Of a stretch of DNA of 64,000 nucleotides, positions 3,471 through 50,886 are shown piece after piece (the stretch's first letter is position 1; each line of letters starts with the position of its first letter). The stretch spans positions 1,582,001 to 1,646,000 of the forward strand of contig JABWDB010000005.1 in the NCBI GenBank assembly GCA_019614645.1, written 5' to 3'. The notes beneath the pieces were generated by a model. It searched no databases. It was not told where the DNA came from and saw only the letters and a list, made by a program, of their open reading frames with translations. The DNA is from Stratiolaelaps scimitus. Taxonomy: Eukaryota; Arthropoda; Arachnida; Mesostigmata; Laelapidae. Position numbers and translations under genes: made by a program.

Positions 3471-3474
3471 CGGC

Positions 3475-3678
3475 GCCAGAACAAAGTCCAATGTTCCTCT
3501 CTGTGCTCTCTGTCACATGTATCGCGCCAGAACAAAGTCCAATGTTCCTCTCTGTGCTCTCTGTCACATGTATCGCGCCAGAACAAAGTCCAATGTTCCT
3601 CTCTGTGCTCTCTGTCACATGTATCGCGCCAGAACAAAGTCCACTGTTCCCCTCTGTGCTCTCTGGCGAATGTGTTTG
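3475..3678. repeat. 51-bp minisatellite, four tandem copies
   Basis: The unit beginning gccagaacaaagtccaatgt recurs at 3475, 3526, 3577 and 3628, an exact 51-bp period. The first three copies are almost identical and the fourth diverges (ccactgttcccc). Because 51 is a multiple of three, frames stay open through the array on both strands, which produces repetitive spurious proteins. It lies about 30 bp beyond the PEX5 stop codon and so may be transcribed in the PEX5 3' UTR. Confidence 0.9.
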
Positions 3679-3709: not shown

Positions 3710-6687
3710 TCACACAACCTCGTAGGAGCCACTGAGCGGCGGTGCGGATGCGTCTTGCTTTATAAAGACACGGTTGAGCCTGCCGAGATCTCGGGCATCG
3801 ACGTCAGGATAGAGATCGGCTCGGTTCATAAGGGTTAGGGTCATTCGGAGGGTGTTCCAGATGTTGTCCGACATCGCTGAGCTCCGGGCGATTCCACTTG
3901 CGGCTTCGGCCTTGGCACTATCCTGCGAAGGTGAGATCATGATGCGTAATAGAGCTGTCTGATGAATAATAGCAATATATCTACATAGAGAACACATGAC
4001 CAACTATGTTGATGACTGCACAGACAATTATAGTTCAAGACGTTGCGACCACTTCCTGATAAGCATTCCGTAGGGAGGTTCGAAAATCCACAATACAAGG
4101 CCACGAAACTAATGACAGAGCCACTCATACCTGCAAATTAAGCGCGGTAAGAAAATGCTCCGCTGCTTCATGGTGCGCTCCCAAATTGATGCACGTGATA
4201 CCGAGATTAAATCGAGCCCGGATAAATCCCGGATGTAACTGAAGTGATCGCCGATACGCCTCGACAGCCTCCTCGGAATGGCCGCCGTTCGCTAGCGATG
4301 CACCCAGCCTACAGCACGGAGAGAACCGATGTGGAGAATAGCGATGTAGTTACATAAACAACAAAAAGGTACTGTATTTCCACCGAGACAGAGGCAGCCA
4401 TAAGAACTGCTGAAGAACCGCGCAGCTAATTCTGCTACCGGCCAGATGATTCGCCTAGTGTGATCTACTACAGAGTGTTGTTCACGTTAATCCTTCCCAC
4501 ACTGTACTCACCGATTCCACAGTAAGGAGTCATCGGGTTTGACTGCAACAGCAGCCCGGAAACAATCGACAGCCTTCTCAAAGTCGCCAGTCAGGCTGAG
4601 CAGGACTCCCAGACAGGACTGGATATCGGGATCCGGAGCGTCCGGGTTGATCTGGGCTGCACTAATGTACATGTCCAACACGCGTTTATGCTCCCGACCT
4701 TCTAGTACCGACATAATGTGCGCCTCCTTCGTCTCGGTTCCGGCGGGCTCAGGCGCCGGCTAACGTAGATGTGTGGCAAAAAGTTCCGCTTTAGTATTCA
4801 CAAAACTACGATCGGGTTGACATTGTGCGTTTGAAGTTATTCGGGACAGCATACGACTGCGAGCGAGCCGAATGACTAACGCACAGATTCGAAACAAACA
4901 AATTCATTCAGCAGCTGTAGAATACGCATAAGGATACACCGCCCCGCCCCGCCCCCCGTGTTATCACCGGGTGGGATTTACTTACAATGTGACTTTCTCG
5001 TTCTTACCTGAACAAGATGTCCGTACTTCGGATGGGCGCGAAGCCATTCAGTGAGAACTTCACACGCCTGTCGCTGTAAACCTTCGTTCGTATAGCTGAC
5101 AGCCAGTGCAAGCATAGCGGCAGCATTTTGCGGCTGTAGCTGAAGACACTGACGCAACGCGGCGATGGCCTGCACGTCCTGCTCGTTCTGCGCCTGCGTC
5201 GTACCCAACAATTGCCAGGCTTCGGCGTGCGCGCTGTCCTTTCGAACTGCCGCCTCGAAGAGTAGCACAGCCGAGGGAAGATCACCTTCGCGGAGCTTTT
5301 GAAGGCCCTCATCGAACGGATTCACTACGGCCTCCTCGAGAGGGTTTTGCTCATTGAAGCGGTAGCTCCTATATGATTCCGGTAGTGCCTCGAGCTCCTG
5401 TGCCCAATTTTCACCCATCGAGTTAAACGAGGCGTTGCTCCATGTTTCTGCTAAGTCCTTCCAGAATTTGGTATCGTCTCGTACCGTCGTCTTCTCCGCT
5501 GATTTTTCCTCTTTCTCGAGTTCGCTCGCCCACCGCTCGGCTGTCGCAGCACTGCCCGCCTCACCGCCAATCTGGAAGCGCCGTGTCGTCAGCAGGAACA
5601 AGACTGTTAGATTCGTTCACCGCGGTAAGCTCGTTCCTCGCCATTCGCCCCCGTTAATGTGCACTTGGCTGAATACGTCTACGACTATGCTAACCTGTTG
5701 GGCGAATTTGAAGAAGTCCGTTTTTTGTACCGCCGGTTCGTTCTCACTCCGCACGAAGTCTCTCGCGACCTTCTGTAGTTCAGATCTTTCGTCAGCGTCC
5801 CGTTGTTCACTTTCTGCGAGAATATCCTCGGCCCACTTTCCGCCGCTGGCAGCGGCTGCCTCCTCCACGCGCAGTGCAGACGGCATGAGATGTTCCATTG
5901 GCATTAACATTGGCCGTTCGGGCCCGTACAACTGATGAGCCATTTGCGGCATCGGCATAACGCTACCACCTGCCGAATGATGAGCAAGGCCGGCAGACGA
6001 GGACGCCGCATGCGACCCCGCCGCCATAAACTCGCTGGCCCACGGCCCAGCCTGGAGAGGACGCGCCACGGCCGCAGTACCGAACTCGCGAGCCCATTGT
6101 TGACCGCCTGACGGACCTGCACATTGCATACACCAAAGCACAGCACAGGCTAGACAGAATCGAAGATGAACGTCCTGCTAGGCTGAGAAGATGCGAGAGG
6201 ACTTCTCCTTTTTTCTCTATTAATTCATCAATTCTATCTTATTCCAATACTACAATAATATGGATTAAACACACATCAATTTATATCATCAAGTCGCGTA
6301 ACTGCCACTATAAATAAGACACACCACCGCTACCACCATAATCATTATCCCGACGATCTGCTTGCTTTTAACAAATGCCAAACATTTGTGACACCCGCCG
6401 CGAACCTCGGCGAGTTCACCTCCCTGAGTACCGATTCTGGATCCCAATGAGTACTTGCCATGCCGTTGTTGCTGCTGTTGTTGTCCCGTCGTCTGGTTGA
6501 TCTGCTGCAACAGCTCACCCATATGGAACGTCGTCGGCGCCGAAACAGGACCTCTGGGTACTGCACCGATCGGTGTCACATGCCGGCTGTGCTGTTGAAG
6601 GTGTTCTCGGCCTCGTAGCTGCTGCGATAGCTCGCCGAGCGGATTTTGTGTTCCGCATTGGGGGTCAATCAGCTCGCGCATCGACAT
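3710..6687 (-). CDS. PEX5: PEX5, peroxisomal PTS1 import receptor (six exons)
   Basis: Cytosolic cycling receptor that binds C-terminal SKL-type signals and delivers cargo to the PEX13/PEX14 docking complex. Exons on the minus strand: 6687-6420, 6116-5695, 5571-5008, 4759-4512, 4308-4131, 3922-3710; all phases agree and give about 630 residues (the human protein is 639). The start ATG gives [17 protein letters not shown]; Cys11 aligns with the conserved Cys that is mono-ubiquitinated for recycling. The N-terminal half is disordered with WxxxF/Y-like PEX14-binding pentapeptides (WAREF, WASEF, WAEDI, WASEL, WAQEL). The C-terminal half holds the TPR array: [52 protein letters not shown]. The C-terminal helix [14 protein letters not shown] matches the family end. 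Exon 1 donor is GGGAG|GTGAAC and exon 2 acceptor tgcag|GT, giving phase 1 on both sides. No defect was seen. Confidence 0.95.
4939..4965. repeat. GC-box-like CCGCCCC run in PEX5 intron 3
   Basis: Three consecutive ccgcccc units followed by a C-run lie in the intron between PEX5 exons 3 and 4. They resemble Sp1-type GC boxes but may be simple low-complexity sequence. Confidence 0.4.
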
Positions 6688-23233: not shown

Positions 23234-25400
23234 CTAAAATCCAACAATGACACATATCTGCTAGAGTATTCATGTCACAAGTGATTCCACCCCAAGCAAT
23301 ATATCGTTACAGCAGGTTCAGTCGACACTGGTTATGCTTGCAGGGCGCACCCAAAACGATCTTGTGTACGAAGTGTTCTCGAGTTGCAACGAGACCAATA
23401 TGCATCTTTTTGGCTGTTGAGTTCGGTGATCTTTCACCGATTTGTCGTCTACTCTACGCAGTCACATAGGAATACTATTGTTACATCCCATTGGCTATGG
23501 TATCTGTTTTCGATACTTGCCCACTAGTGATTACCCGCTACTTCGTTCCATAGCACATATATGCGGGTTCATTACACATCCTTTTTGATATGGACCTATG
23601 CGTCACACACATACACGTGGATCAAGCTGTCGCCCTTCTCTTCACACGGATTACAGGCCACATCGCCAGCGAGGCCCGTGAGATAGGGCCCGCGCATACG
23701 TCTACAAAGCTCAAACGTCTCTCGGATTTTTGTTGTTCGGACCCCGAACGGTTGGGCCGAGTCAATCACATTTGAGCGAAAACAAAATCAACTATTCATC
23801 TGCACTCACACTTTGAAGCTCGTCCCAGACTCGGCGCAAACACCGATATCGTGCGTAGCTGGCTGTATGTACCGCAAAAAGCAAGTCTTCACCATCCTGT
23901 ATACGTGTTGTCGCTTGGTCTCTCTCCCTCTTCTGAGCTGTCTATGTATTGAATTCGCTGGAACAGCTGCTAATGTATCCTTGCACATTGCAAACATTCA
24001 CCGGGTGTCGAACAGTTCGATGGATAGCGGCCAACACGGTTTCGAAGCGGTACGTAAGGGACGCTCGAGTACCTTGTCCCCTGTCGTCTGTGAACACCGA
24101 TGTCTTAAAGCAATCGGCAGAACCGACGGCTGCAGTCATTACAGCTTGATGTGGAATCATATGACTCGGCCGACGGCGAGGAGGGAGGTCTCCGTGTCAC
24201 ATTACCATTTTGGCAGTGCAGCCGAAGCTACACACAACCTTTTTTACTTTTTTTTTACAACCTTTTTACTTTTTTTTTACCGAGAACTTAAACATATGTA
24301 TGTATATTGCAGTTCCGAGAATAAACATTTGATTATGATATGATATGATCCAAACGGTGGTTACCGCTCTATATTATACAACAGCGTATGTAGTACAATA
24401 TGTCTTTGTGCTTTTCAGCATGCGGCCATCGAGAACGTCCTTGCACGGTCTGCTTGAGCACGCACGGACAGTTATACGATGCGGTGGGAGGGTACAGCAG
24501 ACGCAGGTCACGTGTCCCATATTACAGAGAACATAGCGTAAATAGCGAATTTAGAAGGAGCGATTTCTAGTATTTCTACTAAGAAATTATTAATATCTGT
24601 GCTATCATATCAAATATCGAATACTTGCGGCTCCTCTCGTTCCCTGCCTATCGTGATATCGTTTGTGCGCTACAATTGCAATTTCTATTAATAAAAACTC
24701 GCTTGAAACCCAAGGAGCTCGCTCATCTCGGCTGGCCTCGTATGTATGAGAACGAATTCTAATCCACCAATGGATTGAAGGTCATATTTAAAGGTAAAGG
24801 TAAAGGTTTATTGGTTTATTGAAGGAGCTGCAATTTTGTTAAGTATTCTTTGTCAATGTATATTTGGGGCCGAAGCTTTATTAACGAAAGCATTTCTCCT
24901 ATATGTGTACGCGATAACACAGTGTTTTTGTTGATTATAAACGTTTACACATCATATTTGTGTCATTAAACAATATTATGGGTTGGCAATAATCAACCGA
25001 ATGCGTGGTTCATCATTCATTCGCATATGTCACCCCGGATGGCTGACCCGTAATGTCACGCAGGCTGTCGAGAACGCACAAGGTGTTCCCCGCTCACTCA
25101 GGCAAGAGGGGTGGCATCTCTTTAAAAGGGCCATCCTTACACGGGTAGCTTCAACGGTACGTCGAGATGGGCGACCTTCTGAACTCGCTTGGCACGTGGC
25201 AAAACGTCGGCAAGGCGCGCGCGTTACAACTCTGGCGATCGTCTGCCACTGTAGGGCGCTATACGCTTAGGATTCACCCAAACCCATACCAGGTTTCTTA
25301 CGAGGTGAGGTCGGCACATATTGAGTCGAGGTTGTATACTGGAGAAGCCACAACCAACACCTGTTACAGAAACCTGGCCATTCTGTTGAGACTAGGAACA
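23234..25400. other. Interval upstream of the PDE6D-like gene
   Basis: Should contain the missing exon 1 and promoter of the PDE6D-like gene, but I could not identify it. Frames such as 23813-24343 (+) show no known domain. A 25-bp tandem duplication (acctttttactttttttttac) occurs near 24238-24281, and a partial SINE at 24791-24843. Confidence 0.35.
24791..24843 (-). mobile_element. SINE 3'-tail fragment
   Basis: aaggtaaaggtaaaggttta and tattgaaggagctgcaattt match the tail and distal body of the full SINE; the tRNA-like head is missing. Confidence 0.65.
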
Positions 25401-25950
25401 GATGTATAGATATTCGTACATACAGGGTAAATGAATCCTAATGGGTCAAAAGTTCTTCCAACGTGACTCCAAATTGGTCCTTGCAGAGCAGGTTCGTTCT
25501 TCGTAGATAGCCGCAGCTCCTGAAACTCTGGGAACATTGTAATTAGCTCTGTGCCCCAGATAGTAGCGTGATAAGCTTTGCTCCTCTGATGCCTATATTC
25601 ATGTAGCATTCTTGGAGGCCTTCGGGTACGAGGACACCACTTGTCTCTAACGAATTCGAAGTACCTTGCCGAATTATGTTCAATGAGTAATGATAGAAGT
25701 TGGGCAAGTATACAGGCCGGTTAGGCAGGGAAGTTCGCCACTCGAAGCTAGGTTTTTTAGCGCCCATTGAAATCAATGCTACACATCGAGCTTGGCGTGT
25801 GATCCGTCTCCTCCGGCGAGTGCCAGCTCGCAGGTGACATCTGAATCGTATCGAACAATCCAATATCCTATGACAGATTTCCTCATATGTGATGACGTTG
25901 GAGTTTTCGAGTAATTGAAACATGCATCGGCTTTGATGTACGCGCAAACG
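25400..25950 (-). mobile_element. Possible BEL/Pao-type retrotransposon relic
   Basis: Two overlapping minus-strand frames cover this region. One contains SHVGRTFDPLGFIYPV, which resembles the (R/Q)xxDPLGxxxPV motif typical of Pao/BEL polyproteins. The upstream frame is Arg-rich without clear motifs. No LTRs, protease or integrase were recognised. The assignment rests on one motif. Confidence 0.3.
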
Positions 25951-29596: not shown

Positions 29597-32500
29597 AGTT
29601 TCCACAGTGGGACGTAACATCGGGCTTAGGGCGAGCATATTCCGAATGAGTTCGTGTTCTTCGCAGAATTTCTCCTTGAAGCCCTGCAAATCAGTTTGAC
29701 AGTATCTGACACGTATTTGACGTTACACAACATTGGGGTCTGAAGAAGGTATAGAGTTAAACGAAACTTCAGACGGTCTTCTGATACGTATAACAACAAC
29801 AACCATTTCGAATGCACAATTCATCATGCGTTTAGCGTAAATATATCTACAAGAAAAGATACCATACGCCGAAGCATGAGCAAGGTGCATAGGGGTTTGT
29901 GTCTAGCTGTATCTAGGCTGGGCGTTTACGTCGTAAGGTAAAGGTAAGGTAAAGGTAAAGCTTTATTTGTTTATTAAAGGAACTGCAGTTTTTACACTGC
30001 TTTAGTTCTCTTATATGTCACGAGTGGGCAAGCACCTTTACCTCCGGAAAGATGAATTGCTTAACAGCTGTGAGCTTGACAATTCGCTCCATGGATGTCA
30101 CCATTGGCCACAGTAACTCGAAGAGGATTAGCCCGAGGGCATAAATGTCGACTTTCTGACCATACTTCCTTCCGTTCATCTGCTCAGGGGTCATGTACAT
30201 TGTGGTTCCGATACCGTATGTCAACGTGTGCATGTCGGATGTATCGTGACCATTGCCACCTTGTCCTGTTGCGTCGACTTCGACCGGACTAATACTGGAC
30301 CGTCGTAGCGACGTTCTGCCGGTAATCCTTCCGGTGCCCGCTACCAATCCGAAGTCACCGACCTACGGGATTAGACAAGGGTTTATGATCGAAAAAAAAG
30401 GCCTCTCTCTCACAAAGAGTTCGCACAAGAAGATTACAGCAGAGTTCACAGAACGAGCCAGCAGGTTTGGAGTCAAGTTTGATATGCAAGTTTATACGAG
30501 AAGATGTGATTGCACCTTGGATATTTTGATATTTATTATAATTTCACCATAAGCCACAAGCCGTATGCAAGTCGACAGAGGAGCAAGTTGTATTGACATG
30601 ATCTAAGACTAACACAGAGGGACAACTGCAGGGGGAATCTTGAACTATTTGTAGAAAAAAATCCGGAGACGCCAGCAATCGTCAGCCACTTGAGGAACGT
30701 ACGCGCTGAGAGATCTTACGATGTGTTTCTCTGGCAATGAGTGCTTCATTGTACCAGCTTCATTGTGGAATAAATCGGTTGTGATGAATTGATTTAGTAA
30801 TTTGGTGAAATTCATTGAGGAGACGCTGCTCAACGTCCAGGTAGAAATAAATCTCTTAAAATTAGTGATCCGATTGGTGCGCCGCGCTAGTGAAGCTCAA
30901 ATTGTTCTGCGATAGTAAAAAGGCGTTCTTAATTTTGAATTAACAAATTACAAAGTACCTTAATCACGTTGTCCACTCCGGTTTCGAAGAAAATATTTGA
31001 AGGTTTCAGATCGCGATGAACCAGCCCGCACTTGTGTACGCACGCAACAGCCGAACAAATTTGGTAGAACATTTTCAAAACCTGCACACGGAAGCAAAGG
31101 TAAAGGTTTTATTGGTTTATTAAAGGAGCTGCAATTTTACAATGCTTAAGCTCTCTTATATGTCACGCGGCGGGGCTCGAACCTGCGGCCTTTGGCTTCC
31201 GATAGCCAGAGGCTTAGCCGCCCAAGCCACCGCGCTGACAGAAGGAAAGAAACACAAACGAAATACAAATAAGAAAGAACAAATATAATGAAACAAAAAC
31301 ATAAGACAATAGACGCCTCGATCGGCAGCAGCTGGAAAAAAATTCCCGCTTCCCGGTACAATGGTTTAGTTGCTTCGGCTACTATCGAGAAAATTATCAC
31401 CAATTGCTTTGTCTGTCATCAAGGCAAGAGCAGAACAACAGGTAATCTGCGTGAATCTTCAATGAAAACGCGTTCATTTCGACGCTTAGTCAATGCCCGG
31501 TGATTGGTACCTTGTGACGCTGACGTTCCTGAAATGTTTTCGTCTGCGCGAGCCAATCCTTGAGGGACTCCTGTCGGCATAGCTCCATCTGAATATAGAG
31601 ATATGTTGGTCCCTGGGAATATTTCAAATTGTTGAAAGGCACAAAAACCTCGATCATCGTATGCATCGACACTCAGTTTCCCAGTTCTTCTCCGTTTGAC
31701 CTTGTAAAGGAACTTGATTCGTTTATTAAAGGAGATGCGATTTCACAATTCTCTTATATGTCTCGACTTAGTCGACGACTATTCTCTGCTGTTCCTCCTC
31801 TGGTCATAGCAATTCTGCATATTTCACACGAACACTGTATTATAAAATATAATCGATTGATTGTTACTCAGTTTCACAGCGTTGTGTATTGCCATCGTCA
31901 TTCTTTGGGCGTAAGGCAGCGTACGATCGCGAACACAACCTATTACTGAGGCTCACGCCGGGAAGCAACAAAGGTCAGCTAGTCACTTTGCCCCTGTATA
32001 CGAACCCGGATCCCCGCAATCATTTCATTCCTAGAACAAGAGCTGCTGCTGCTGGTGCTTTTCTTAGCGTAGTCACGAGGAGCTGCCAGTGGCCTTGTCT
32101 CACTGTCAGCTACAGCTTCTCTATGGCGAGTAGCTGTAATACAGCCAGAGCTGCAGAGATCGCATAACGTCAATCAAACAAAATCAATTGAACAAATGCT
32201 TCATTAGTAGTTATTATTAATAATTAAATAATTATCAACGTGTCCTAGCTGTAAACAGCAGAACGAGATGCTTGTTCGGGACCCGCGATATAATAGTGTT
32301 GGTATAGACTAGAGGAACTTTTTTATATAACGTTTTTTAACAGTTACATAACATGAGGTGGATCCACTTAAAATGAAACGTGTTAGGCTTAACATACTTG
32401 CTGTCTGTTGGGGAACTGCTGCCGTCCGAGAGGAAATCGATGAAGTCAGACCCTTCCGTTAGGACTGACTCTTCGCCTTCACTGGTGAGTTTACTCGCCC

Positions 32501-33241
32501 TAGGAGTTGTCGTCGCGTTTTGCGCCCTGTCGCGAACGACCATGTCGCTCTTGGAATCGTCTGAGACTCCACCGTTAAAAGAACTGCCGGAGTAGCCTCC
32601 GCTGTCCCGGTGCTCTTGAGTAGCACGGACGGGTTTGTCGGTCTCCGGCGTCAACAGCAGATGGATCATGCTGACGGAGGATGCGCCGAGCGTTCGCGGT
32701 CTCGCACCGTCAATCACTTGTCGTGCGCAGCCACTCATGCTGGGAGACCTTAGCTGATGCTGTGCCGTGTCTTCGATCGACTCGGAATTAGCTGTCCTCC
32801 CTAAGGATGAATGTCAGATGCAGAACGTGTAAAAGAACGCGCAATTTTGGTGATTGTTTTCCCTCTCATATAAAATGATTATACGTAAGGAAACGTGGCA
32901 AGGAAAACGTCTCGCGCGGATCGGAAATCTTCGAAGCATGTCTGCTAGATTCTGGCTGTTGTTAGCAAAAGACAAAATTTGAATCTGCGTGTCTGTATGG
33001 GAACAGGTACGCCACTAACATTCGGTAGGCGTGACATAAATGTCATCTGACAGGTCGCTTTCCCTTAACAATTCCAGGGCAGTCTTCCGGGTAGGGTCCC
33101 TTTGTCGCTGCCACCCAATGGGAGGGGTTTCTAGCCAGGCGTTATAGTACCTGCCGTAGAAATGCGGATAAACACACATCGAGTTATACGTGTGTGTCAT
33201 GTGTTGCAGTTCTCCGTATCTCAATAAGACTCCACCAGCAG

Positions 33242-33277
<36 letters not shown>

Positions 33278-34048
33278 TCTGCCGGTGAAGTCGATAGGTT
33301 CATTATAATAAACATTTTGATAATGTTCAACTGCTGAGTATGCACTCGCCAGTTGGGACTTCTTCTTTTACAAGGTGTTCCTTGTTTTATTAGAAATATC
33401 GATAAATCATCCAATAATTCAAGTGGCAAGTGCCACACGTCTAGCGCCATATATAGGGCGTACCGAACGATGTTTGGGTGATGCAGCTTGGCAAGCGCCT
33501 TCACCTCTCGGAGCACCTTTTCCCGAGTCCTTGTTGTTGCCGGTAGAAGGATTCGTTTGACGGCGTACGAGCACTCATCGATCTTGTTCTGACTCTCATA
33601 CACGACACCGTATCCACCCTATACCAAGTGACGACGACAGCAAGACAGAGCGATGTTCAGTCTTCAGCACAGGCACTTTCACAGTTCACAGCGTCGCCCA
33701 GAGCGGCGGTCTGCATCCCAGACATCCTGAGGTGGTCTGAGACGCTTTCCACGAAGCTCACCTCCCACGTCAATCACTCATACACAAGACGATGCCTCTC
33801 GGTAAGACTATACCCATGTAGGGCTATTTTTGATAACCCCTCCCCACCCAGAGGGAATTAACTAGATTTCATTTACTCTAGAAAGCACCCCGTAATTCCC
33901 ACGGCGCCGCCCAACAACGTATGTACTCTGTTCAGCATTGACGTACCTTTCCAAGACAACGAACGGGCTCGAAATCGGTGAGGTATCGTGACACATAGCT
34001 GCTGAGCGCACTGGTCTTCGGAGGCGGAGCGACCTTTGAATGTGTCAT
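29597..34048 (-). CDS. PERK-derived kinase-only gene (tandem partial duplicate of EIF2AK3)
   Basis: Predicted eIF2-alpha kinase of the PEK family without luminal or transmembrane parts. Exons on minus: 34048-33947, 33618-33464, 33150-33020, 32800-32398, 32150-32006, 31612-31511, 31081-30959, 30362-30042, 29683-29597. All phases agree, giving 523 codons with no stop. Each exon matches PERK exons 10-18 one for one (155 vs 155, 131 vs 134, 403 vs 379, 145 vs 148, 123 vs 120, 321 vs 318, 87 vs 87 nt). Kinase signatures: [13 protein letters not shown] then GGYGVVYE (P-loop), SYAVKRI (catalytic Lys), [20 protein letters not shown], acidic/Ser-rich insert (exons 3-5), [66 protein letters not shown]. 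The ATG has AAC at -3 and follows an in-frame TAG. The end is uncertain: either the donor ACT|GTAAGT at 29597 is used with an unseen last exon, or reading continues to a stop at 29369. Confidence 0.87.
29934..30022 (-). mobile_element. SINE copy next to a kinase splice donor
   Basis: Repeated aggtaa tail units, ttatttgtttattaaaggaa and ctcttatatgtcacg match the SINE body and tail; the tRNA-like head is lost. On minus it begins about 18 nt after the donor of the DFG exon (30042) of the kinase-only gene. Confidence 0.7.
31096..31240 (-). mobile_element. tRNA-derived SINE, complete copy next to a splice acceptor
   Basis: On minus: A-box-like TGGCTTGGGCGGCTAAG, B box GGTTCGAGCCC, body gtgacatataagagagctta, tail ending AAAACCTTTACCTTTGC. 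The tail stops about 12 nt before the acceptor of the HRD exon (31081) of the kinase-only gene. Confidence 0.85.
31702..31768 (-). mobile_element. Degenerate SINE fragment
   Basis: cttgtaaaggaacttgattc, tttattaaaggagatgcgat and ctcttatatgtctcg align loosely with the SINE tail and body. It lies in the intron upstream of the kinase-only exon at 31612-31511. Confidence 0.45.
33242..33276. repeat. (TA)n microsatellite in a kinase-only intron
   Basis: About 35 bp of uninterrupted TA between the P-loop exon and the next exon. Confidence 0.9.
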
Positions 34049-34054
34049 GTTCTC

Positions 34055-36007: not shown

Positions 36008-37724
36008 CCCTGCTTCTCCTGCAGTAAATTGATGGCTGATATCGTGTAAACGATATGCTCGTTTTCGCAGCGGCGTCACTATTGCGAACGAAATCTCATA
36101 GGAGATGGCTCTCGCTATAGCTTTGGTACTAGTCTTTTTCACTCATTGATTGGTGTCATTGCCGGTCCTTTCATAATTTTCACATTCTACATTCACCTGT
36201 TACTCGGTCAATCATGCTGCTATTGCCATACAATTAATGGTAATAAATTATAGCAAACCGTATTTAAATGTGTGTATAGAGGTGTATTCTGTCCATCGCG
36301 ACGTTCCCAATATGTCGTTCAAGACGATATATATATATATATAACTACGCTAAACATTCGCTGACGAAATGACCCCACATAAATATCACGCATCCGACGA
36401 TGCGTACACATCTATTAAACTCAATCAGCGCCGCTATCGGCCGCGCTGACGAATCACGTTCACACAGAAGGAATCACCGGAGACACCTGTGAAAACATTT
36501 TCCAGATCCCAGTGTACACAAGGCCGGCGACGGTCGAGGTCTGATCCACAGCAGAAATTCATGCAGACCAGCGTACGTATGTGACGGCACAAGAATACCG
36601 GCATTACCCATACACCAAACAAAAGATCAGTGAAATCGTCACCCCAGACCGTATTCACGTTGGGGGATTCAAAGGAACACCGATGTGTGTCATGTCATCG
36701 TTGAACTTTGCCCGCTGACATCGGTCAGCAGCGATTAGCCCACGACCATTTGTAGGTCACAAAACCATTTGAGTAGTAGTGCATTGCTCTCCATTAATGA
36801 ACCCCTCGCTCGCGCTAATTCCTCTCAAATGAATCGTTCGTTGCGTGTGCCACTAACGTCAAAAATTCATAGTCGTTATTCGATGTTTATTATTCATCAT
36901 CATGCGCCTACGGCGGCATGCTGTTCGATTTCAACTCGATTTATGTTACCAGAGAAATTTTGCTAATCATACTTCTACTGTCAATTTTCACGATAATCAT
37001 AATAAGCCGCTCACTACAATGTCGACTCAGTCACACGACTCGAGCGATTCCAATACCCCTAAATTCAAATATACTACGGTTATAGCTTGCTGTAATGACG
37101 TGAGGTGAACAAAAGTCATGGTATCAGCGATTAGCTGAACGGACAAATCGATAAACAGTCTCATGTAAAACGCTCGACGCCTCCGCAGGCGCGGCTCAAT
37201 GCTTAATCACATTTTTCGCTCGAAAGTCCTTCGTGGCTACAGTTTGGCTACATCGGTACGCTGTCAGCGACGCGATGCCTCTCTGTCGATGCAGACTCTG
37301 ATTAAAAGTCAATTACACACATTCATATGAACTGTTTGCTTGGCATACGCCACACGGCACAACTATACGAACACAGCGAGATGGGCGAGCTTCGGATAGT
37401 TGTCGAGTTATTATCACGGATGGCAAGATCGAGTGATGGGAGCACTTTTTTAGTGTCGTACTGATTCATGATTACCCCTTCCTCCACCACCAACAACAAC
37501 AAGCCCCCTTCAGTAACTTGCCCATCACCTACATCTGGTCACGAGGTATGGGCCAGGCCCGCACACGCTTCGTGCCTTTGCAGAAAATGACGAAAACGCG
37601 ACGCTGCAGGTCACAACTCGCCCTTGCTACCGTATGACGAGAGGTGGAGGTGACGATTCTCCGTGTCTTCCTTCCTACACATGTTCCTCTGTCGTGTCCA
37701 GCTCCTTACGACGGCCATCGCCCT
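34055..37724. other. Spacer between the PERK duplicate and PERK
   Basis: No coding sequence recognised over 3.7 kb. (TA)n tracts lie at about 35608-35631, 35972-36005 and 36330-36343. If the kinase-only cassette is an alternative 3' end of PERK, this is intronic; otherwise it holds the promoter of the duplicate. Confidence 0.45.

Positions 37725-50886
<13,162 letters not shown>

What the first reader, a model, noticed from the sequence alone, without database searches (positions are those of the whole stretch)
29597..34048. A second, kinase-only PERK gene in tandem with full-length PERK
Nine exons reproduce PERK exons 10-18 with conserved phases and near-identical lengths. The copy lacks the signal peptide, luminal sensor and transmembrane helix but keeps the P-loop, catalytic Lys, [11 protein letters not shown] and PEQ motifs, with no stop or frameshift over 523 codons. 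Animals normally have one PERK. A soluble PEK-type kinase would be uncoupled from luminal ER-stress sensing and could act as a new eIF2-alpha kinase.
Basis: partly seen in the sequence, partly recalled or inferred. Interest (0 to 1): 0.88.

Follow-up and report, generated by a model that had tools for sequence, protein, structure and literature searches.

The report
Sensorless PERK kinase copy in mite
A mite genome carries, right behind its normal ER-stress sensor kinase PERK, an old and apparently intact second copy of only the kinase half, which would make an enzyme that can no longer feel stress inside the ER; whether it is switched on in the animal is not yet known.

Summary
On the minus strand a full PERK gene (copy A, about 50.9-37.7 kb) is followed by a second kinase half (copy B). 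I found a tenth, terminal exon at 28707-28561, so B is a 571-codon frame with its own stop. All nine introns have the same phase in A and B. No luminal or transmembrane exon belongs to B.

B is old and constrained: about 70% core identity to A with saturated silent sites, dN about 0.19, no stop, 45 of 45 invariant PERK kinase residues kept. A is the orthologue of Varroa and Tropilaelaps PERK. B branches outside that clade (100) and inside Galendromus (95); an A+B pair is rejected by the AU test only (p = 0.0245; KH and SH do not reject). No B orthologue is among 241 proteins fetched.

Most likely B is a working, sensorless eIF2-alpha kinase. A cassette spliced onto A's membrane exon is not excluded. 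Expression is untested. Kinase-only EIF2AK3-like proteins also occur in three aphids, so the architecture is not unique.

The parts
33947..34048 (-). copy B exon 10 (first coding exon), ATG at 34048; a possible phase-0 acceptor lies at 34054
33464..33618 (-). copy B exon 11: glycine loop, AVKR lysine, alpha-C Glu
33020..33150 (-). copy B exon 12 ([10 protein letters not shown])
32398..32800 (-). copy B exon 13: long kinase-insert linker, poorly conserved
32006..32150 (-). copy B exon 13b: linker; supported by phase and length, fair donor; tentative
31511..31612 (-). copy B exon 14 (YLYIQMELC)
30959..31081 (-). copy B exon 15: HRDLKPSN catalytic loop
30042..30362 (-). copy B exon 16: DFG, activation-loop threonines, TPEQ, alpha-G (TSMER)
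29597..29683 (-). copy B exon 17 (LRPTVET)
50158..50757 (-). copy A: first luminal PERK exon region as aligned to Varroa PERK (signal-peptide-like stretch, by eye, just upstream in the same open frame, to about 50.9 kb)
43108..46757 (-). copy A: further luminal exons (pieces 46757-46566, 45765-45634, 45207-44995, 44111-43977, 43281-43108)
42402..42614 (-). copy A exon 9: transmembrane helix, phase-0 donor at 42402
37725..42234 (-). copy A exons 10-18 (42234-42082, 41758-41604, 41435-41302, 41076-40698, 40206-40059, 39701-39528, 39126-39007, 38782-38465, 38366-38280, 37853-37725): kinase half, the homologous unit
31097..31237 (-). tRNA-headed SINE-like element in a copy B intron, ending about 15 bases before the exon 15 acceptor
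29938..30020 (-). tail of the same repeat, starting about 21 bases after the copy B exon 16 donor

Best explanation
Copy B is a protein-coding, lineage-restricted paralogue of PERK made by tandem DNA duplication of the cytosolic half of the gene (exons 10 to 18, stop codon included). It encodes a roughly 571-residue PEK-type kinase without luminal sensor and membrane anchor. Shown by sequence: open frame, matching gene structure, all invariant kinase residues kept, long-term purifying selection. Inferred: it is translated from its own ATG, stays in the cytosol, is activated by back-to-back kinase dimerisation and loop autophosphorylation, governed by its abundance or by whatever binds its divergent linker, and phosphorylates eIF2-alpha, so it feeds the integrated stress response without ER-lumen input.
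For: Ten exons, one open frame, nine of nine intron phases shared with A. tblastn of full Varroa PERK at E up to 10 shows, between 28.0 and 37.7 kb on either strand, only kinase-half matches and one 24-residue plus-strand match at E = 3.5. The most hydrophobic 19 residues of the 571 in B reach 1.65 (a kinase helix; A's kinase half 1.68) against 2.22 for A's transmembrane exon. 45 of 45 columns invariant in 32 PERK rows (gaps ignored) are kept in B, against 37 of 45 in the second, degenerate Halotydeus kinase; of columns conserved in at least 90%, B keeps 94 of 99 (changes Y128C, T161A, V169I, L173M, S176T), among them loop threonines 166 and 171, alpha-G columns 207, 209 and 210 (T, M, E) and D at column 6. 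dN about 0.19 against saturated dS (1.6-2.0 by two methods, undefined by NG86, YN00 failed); 31 of 84 fourfold sites identical. Neutral mutants: 0 of 300 stop-free at 0.2 subs/site. A at -3 before the ATG. That an isolated PERK kinase domain is switched on by dimerisation and phosphorylates eIF2-alpha is shown with the Fv2E-PERK chimera (PMC5482508, passages).
Against: No transcript, promoter or protein evidence. No orthologue found: of 241 proteins fetched (the best 120 each), 17 have a kinase core scoring higher to B than to A, by at most 36 points and at low totals (PKRs among them), and the best scorers to B are the A-type mite PERKs; yet the tree would place the duplication before the Varroa-Tropilaelaps split, so loss or missing annotation must be assumed. 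B evolves much faster than A (branch 0.56 against 0.01, stem of A+Varroa+Tropilaelaps 0.07), and the regions outside the core share only 52 of 247 aligned residues with A, which fits relaxed constraint or a new role. A SINE-like insertion ends about 15 bases before one B acceptor.
Confidence: 0.55

Rival explanations
1. B is not a separate gene but an alternative 3' cassette of the PERK gene: transcripts start at A's promoter, skip A exons 10-18 and splice the transmembrane exon onto B exon 10, giving an ER-anchored sensor with a second kinase domain.
For: Same strand, downstream, all phases equal; A's exon 9 donor is phase 0 and scores highest, jointly, of 18 donors (12.64 left out of the model); B's frame opens exactly behind an AG at 34054, also phase 0. 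Duplicating exons 10-18 without a promoter would give just this.
Against: The 34054 acceptor is weak (1.02, 76th percentile of all minus-strand AGs; 3 of 18 accepted sites score lower when left out of the model). The splice would have to skip about 8 kb with ten exons and AATAAA motifs at 36891, 35526 and 34998. B has an ATG six bases further in.
Confidence: 0.2
2. B is a silent or decaying duplicate: under selection for a long time but now unexpressed or on its way to loss, as may already have happened in the Varroa-Tropilaelaps line.
For: No B orthologue among the proteins fetched, long branch, unconserved linker, SINE-like repeats next to two B splice sites, one fair donor.
Against: No stop or frameshift in 571 codons, all 45 invariant residues kept, GT and AG at every modelled intron end. 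A neutral copy would show stops by 0.1-0.2 subs/site, so any loss of function would be recent.
Confidence: 0.15
3. B is an active kinase with a changed job: different substrate, or a modulator of A by heterodimerisation.
For: Fast evolution and a linker unlike A's. B keeps the SRYLTDF and IVRYY stretches that I recall as dimer contacts in PKR, so pairing with A is possible.
Against: The alpha-G columns 207, 209 and 210, recalled as part of the eIF2-alpha docking site in PKR, are unchanged, which favours the old substrate.
Confidence: 0.1

Closest known systems
PERK / EIF2AK3 of Varroa destructor (P0123) and Tropilaelaps mercedesae (P0001)
   Same: Same kinase family; A is the clear orthologue (236 and 237 of 254 core residues); B has 169 and 173 of 254.
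   Different: B lacks luminal sensor and transmembrane helix; it keeps the P of the PEQ motif where A, Varroa and Tropilaelaps have H.
Kinase-only EIF2AK3-like proteins of aphids (Metopolophium P0072, Macrosiphum P0080, Myzus P0083)
   Same: PERK-type kinase with 48-52 residues before the glycine loop and no hydrophobic segment there.
   Different: 365-417 residues; they form their own clade (100) far from B, so the origin looks independent. Only protein records were seen, not their genes.
Halotydeus destructor EIF2AK3 prediction (P0122)
   Same: A mite; short N-terminus without hydrophobic segment, PERK-type kinase domains in tandem.
   Different: Both domains in one predicted protein; the second has HRN and DFA in place of HRD and DFG and keeps 37 of 45 invariant residues; neither groups with B.
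PKR, GCN2, HRI (cytosolic eIF2-alpha kinases)
   Same: What B would work like: soluble eIF2-alpha kinases.
   Different: B lies among mite PERKs, not with the two PKR rows or the one GCN2 row; Pfam finds only kinase families in it. HRI was not in the tree.

Membership tests
PERK (EIF2AK3) kinase-domain family | Kinase domain groups with PERKs in a tree | tested here: met
   B+A+Varroa+Tropilaelaps 95, with Galendromus 96, with P0127 100
PERK (EIF2AK3) kinase-domain family | PERK kinase invariants and catalytic residues | tested here: met
   45 of 45 invariant columns kept
PERK (EIF2AK3) kinase-domain family | PERK exon structure and intron phases in the kinase half | tested here: met
   Nine of nine intron phases shared with copy A
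PERK sensu stricto (ER-stress sensor) | Luminal sensor domain | tested here: not met
   No luminal match near B in tblastn of Varroa PERK at E up to 10, apart from a 24-residue plus-strand match at E = 3.5
PERK sensu stricto (ER-stress sensor) | Transmembrane helix (and signal peptide) | tested here: not met
   No hydrophobic segment above a kinase helix in 571 residues (hydropathy scan only, no signal-peptide program); would be met only if A exon 9 is spliced to B
eIF2-alpha kinase | Phosphorylates eIF2-alpha Ser51 | not testable with these tools
   Loop and alpha-G residues retained; activity unknown
Expressed gene | Spliced transcript | not testable with these tools
   No RNA data for this species were at hand
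Processed pseudogene | Intron loss, disabling mutations | tested here: not met
   Introns retained, frame open

The most novel reading that the evidence does not exclude
A mesostigmatan mite lineage has used one tandem half-gene duplication to gain an additional eIF2-alpha kinase input: a sensorless PERK that triggers the integrated stress response from the cytosol, either as its own gene or as an exchangeable kinase cassette behind the ER sensor, giving one sensor two kinases with different linkers.
Probability: 0.45. Interest if true: 0.7.

Novelty: new variant of a known kind. Interest (0 to 1): 0.55.

Why it matters
Stress inputs to translation are few: a table of 12 arthropod genera lists PERK and GCN2 as found in all, HRI in 10, PKR in none (presence only, not copy number; PMC7917218, passage with Table 1). 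A PERK kinase freed from its lumen sensor would be a natural version of the laboratory Fv2E-PERK chimera, and would show how a new eIF2-alpha kinase arises by losing, not gaining, a sensor. It makes two questions testable: what activates a sensorless PEK kinase, and whether a tandem 3' half-copy becomes a new gene or an alternative cassette. It also cautions against RNAi or inhibitor work on PERK in mites that assumes a single kinase.

Tried and rejected
Assembly duplicate: rejected, because A and B differ at 31% of core nucleotides and introns do not align. Retrocopy: rejected, because introns are kept in phase. Pseudogene of long standing: rejected by the open frame and the neutral simulation; recent silencing is not. 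PKR/GCN2 origin: rejected by the tree. Recent duplication within this species' line (A+B sister, 14.6 log units worse): AU p = 0.0245, but KH p = 0.059 and SH p = 0.22 do not reject it; B outside Galendromus (AU p = 0.386) or outside P0127 too (p = 0.172) is not rejected, and B's long branch could pull it outward. Models without exon 13b and with a phase-0 donor at 32394 were tried and dropped: that donor scores -0.58, the 57th percentile. The first terminal-exon profile match was marginal (E = 0.032 among 197 candidates; fourth of 1,435 over both strands, behind three frames of A itself, the next frame at 7.2 against 8.4 bits); the anchored comparison made it clear, though in local alignment to the Galendromus tail it ranked only third. 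An exon-16 search for B orthologues gave 3 hits, the best an A-type exon (score 388 to A, 216 to B). Summed BLAST scores over the full kinase halves favoured B in 31 of 241 proteins, fish PERKs among them; the core-only comparison (17 of 241, small margins) replaced it. NCBIfam gave distant bacterial kinases below every cut-off. Structure prediction was not used. Literature: ten searches; in the rows listed I saw, by title and abstract start, no paper on a PERK duplicate or kinase-only PERK gene in an animal. One trypanosomatid review holding the phrase 'PERK paralog' (PMC9684732) was not opened, and the library omits most subscription journals. Of three papers I read passages only: PMC7917218, PMC10597351, PMC5482508.
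Full report
WHAT IS THERE. The window is from a mite, judged by copy A: it matches PERK of Varroa destructor (P0123) piece by piece, with 236 of 254 kinase-core residues identical, and 237 of 254 for Tropilaelaps mercedesae (P0001). I did not identify the species. Copy A runs on the minus strand from a signal-peptide-like start near 50.9 kb (by eye) through luminal exons (50.8-43.1 kb), a transmembrane exon (42614-42402) and the kinase half to a stop at 37725. Copy B follows on the same strand.

COPY B, STRUCTURE. A profile search of acceptor-led open frames downstream pointed, marginally (E = 0.032), to 28707-28561. Compared ungapped from the first residue with the C-terminal exons of A, Varroa, Tropilaelaps and Galendromus, this frame scores 29-33, while the best other frame of the 1,430 kept scores 12-15; in local alignment it is first for A, Varroa and Tropilaelaps and third for Galendromus. 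With it, B is 571 codons plus stop, 34048 to 28561, and the Pfam kinase profile is matched to its last position. All nine introns share the phase of the corresponding A intron; intron lengths differ, and only exons and a SINE-like repeat align between the copies (E up to 0.001). So the duplicated piece is the whole cytosolic half of the gene, exons 10 to 18.

NO SENSOR. tblastn of full Varroa PERK at E up to 10 finds luminal and transmembrane exons for A; between 28.0 and 37.7 kb, on either strand, it finds only kinase-half matches and one 24-residue plus-strand match at E = 3.5, taken as chance. The most hydrophobic 19-residue stretch in B's 571 residues (1.65) is the normal kinase helix; A's transmembrane exon reaches 2.22.

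IS IT ALIVE. Core comparison of 257 codons: 179 identical residues, nucleotide identity 0.79, 0.84 and 0.44 at the three codon positions, 31 of 84 fourfold sites identical, dN 0.19-0.20, dS 1.6 (LWL85) to 2.0 (ML), undefined by NG86, and YN00 failed. Silent sites are thus saturated while the core protein is 70% kept; outside the core 52 of 247 aligned residues agree. Neutral mutants of A carry on average 5.5 stops at 0.1 and 9.2 at 0.2 substitutions per site; 2 and 0 of 300 were free of stops. Of 45 columns invariant in 32 PERK rows, B keeps 45; the second Halotydeus domain, a likely pseudokinase, keeps 37. Of 99 columns conserved at 90%, B keeps 94 and A 97. Pairwise dN/dS cannot be split between A and B here, and a recent loss of expression would leave no mark.

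AGE AND ORIGIN. The tree (37 rows, 254 columns) has A+Varroa+Tropilaelaps without B at 100, these with B at 95, and with Galendromus at 96 (the support values printed under the drawing are shifted by re-rooting, the values here are read from the unrooted tree). Two clean derived states of A, Varroa and Tropilaelaps are absent from B (I for M at column 91, H for P at 177), while B shares others with them against Galendromus and ticks (for example E at 92 and A at 193). Forcing A+B together is rejected by AU (p = 0.0245) but not by KH (0.059) or SH (0.22); deeper placements of B are not rejected. Taken at face value the duplication is older than the Varroa-Tropilaelaps split and the copy was lost, or is not annotated, there. 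Searches with B (proteins of about 262-833 aa; 532-1692 aa; exon 16 alone) listed the best 120, 120 and 3 hits; over the 241 distinct proteins the highest core scores to B belong to A-type mite PERKs, and the 17 that prefer B do so by at most 36 points at low totals. Searches scored only about 8,000 candidates each, so an orthologue lower down or unannotated could be missed. B's long branch (0.56) is a further reason for caution.

HOW IT MAY WORK. A PERK kinase domain is activated by forced dimerisation and phosphorylates eIF2-alpha (Fv2E-PERK mice, PMC5482508, passages). B keeps the SRYLTDF and IVRYY stretches, the two loop threonines and the T-M-E of helix alpha-G; that these are dimer, autophosphorylation and eIF2-alpha docking sites is recalled from PKR and PERK work and not from a call. 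I therefore favour a cytosolic eIF2-alpha kinase set by its abundance or by partners of its linker. The alternative, in which A's transmembrane exon is spliced to B, is in phase and would keep ER anchoring; the acceptor needed (34054) scores 1.02, lower than 15 of 18 sites in use. The ATG at 34048 has A at -3, and TCAGTT lies just upstream, which resembles the arthropod initiator as I recall it; neither is proof of a promoter.

COMPARED WITH WHAT IS KNOWN. In Ixodes, PERK, GCN2 and HRI are the eIF2-alpha kinases described, without PKR, and PERK acts through eIF2-alpha (PMC10597351, passages); a survey table marks PERK as present in the mite Leptotrombidium (PMC7917218, passage). Kinase-only EIF2AK3-like proteins exist in three aphids without a hydrophobic N-terminal segment, and Halotydeus has a predicted sensorless protein with two PERK-type kinase domains; both lie elsewhere in the tree. 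So loss of the sensor in PERK-type kinases seems to have happened more than once, and copy B is a new variant of that kind, with both genes side by side and identical intron phases.

LIMITS. No RNA, no second genome, no own-genome search. The exon 13b model is tentative. Interest is set for a sound, well-preserved sensorless PERK of unproven expression.

Noticed in passing
31162-31237 (minus), with related tails at 31186-31097, 30020-29938 and 38063-37966: A tRNA-headed SINE-like repeat (ARAGORN calls a tRNA-like unit) with a shared tail; copies sit in introns of both PERK copies, two of them within about 15-21 bases of copy B splice sites.
   Followed up: partly
P0001, P0123 and copy A, core column 177: The mite PERKs A, Varroa and Tropilaelaps have SHEQ where nearly all PERK rows have SPEQ, while B (TPEQ), Galendromus and the unnamed P0239 keep the proline.
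   Followed up: partly
P0122 (Halotydeus destructor, 916 aa): Predicted protein with two PERK-type kinase domains in tandem and no luminal part; the second has HRN and DFA, a likely pseudokinase.
   Followed up: partly
P0121 (Phthorimaea operculella, 1631 aa): PERK prediction with many near-identical repeats of kinase-half segments; probably an assembly or annotation artefact.
   Followed up: no
4978-6177 (minus): Reading frames that look like a peroxisomal import receptor (PEX5-like, by eye); Pfam confirms only TPR repeats in 4981-5616.
   Followed up: partly
3473-3665: A 51-base tandem repeat, 3.8 copies, 98% matches, open on both strands.
   Followed up: no
25364-25720 (minus): Frame resembling a BEL/Pao-type retroelement polyprotein by eye (FDPLGFIYPV); no Pfam match.
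   Followed up: partly
39330-39501 and 47667-47780; about 33245-33278 (sequence): TA microsatellites inside introns of both PERK copies.
   Followed up: no
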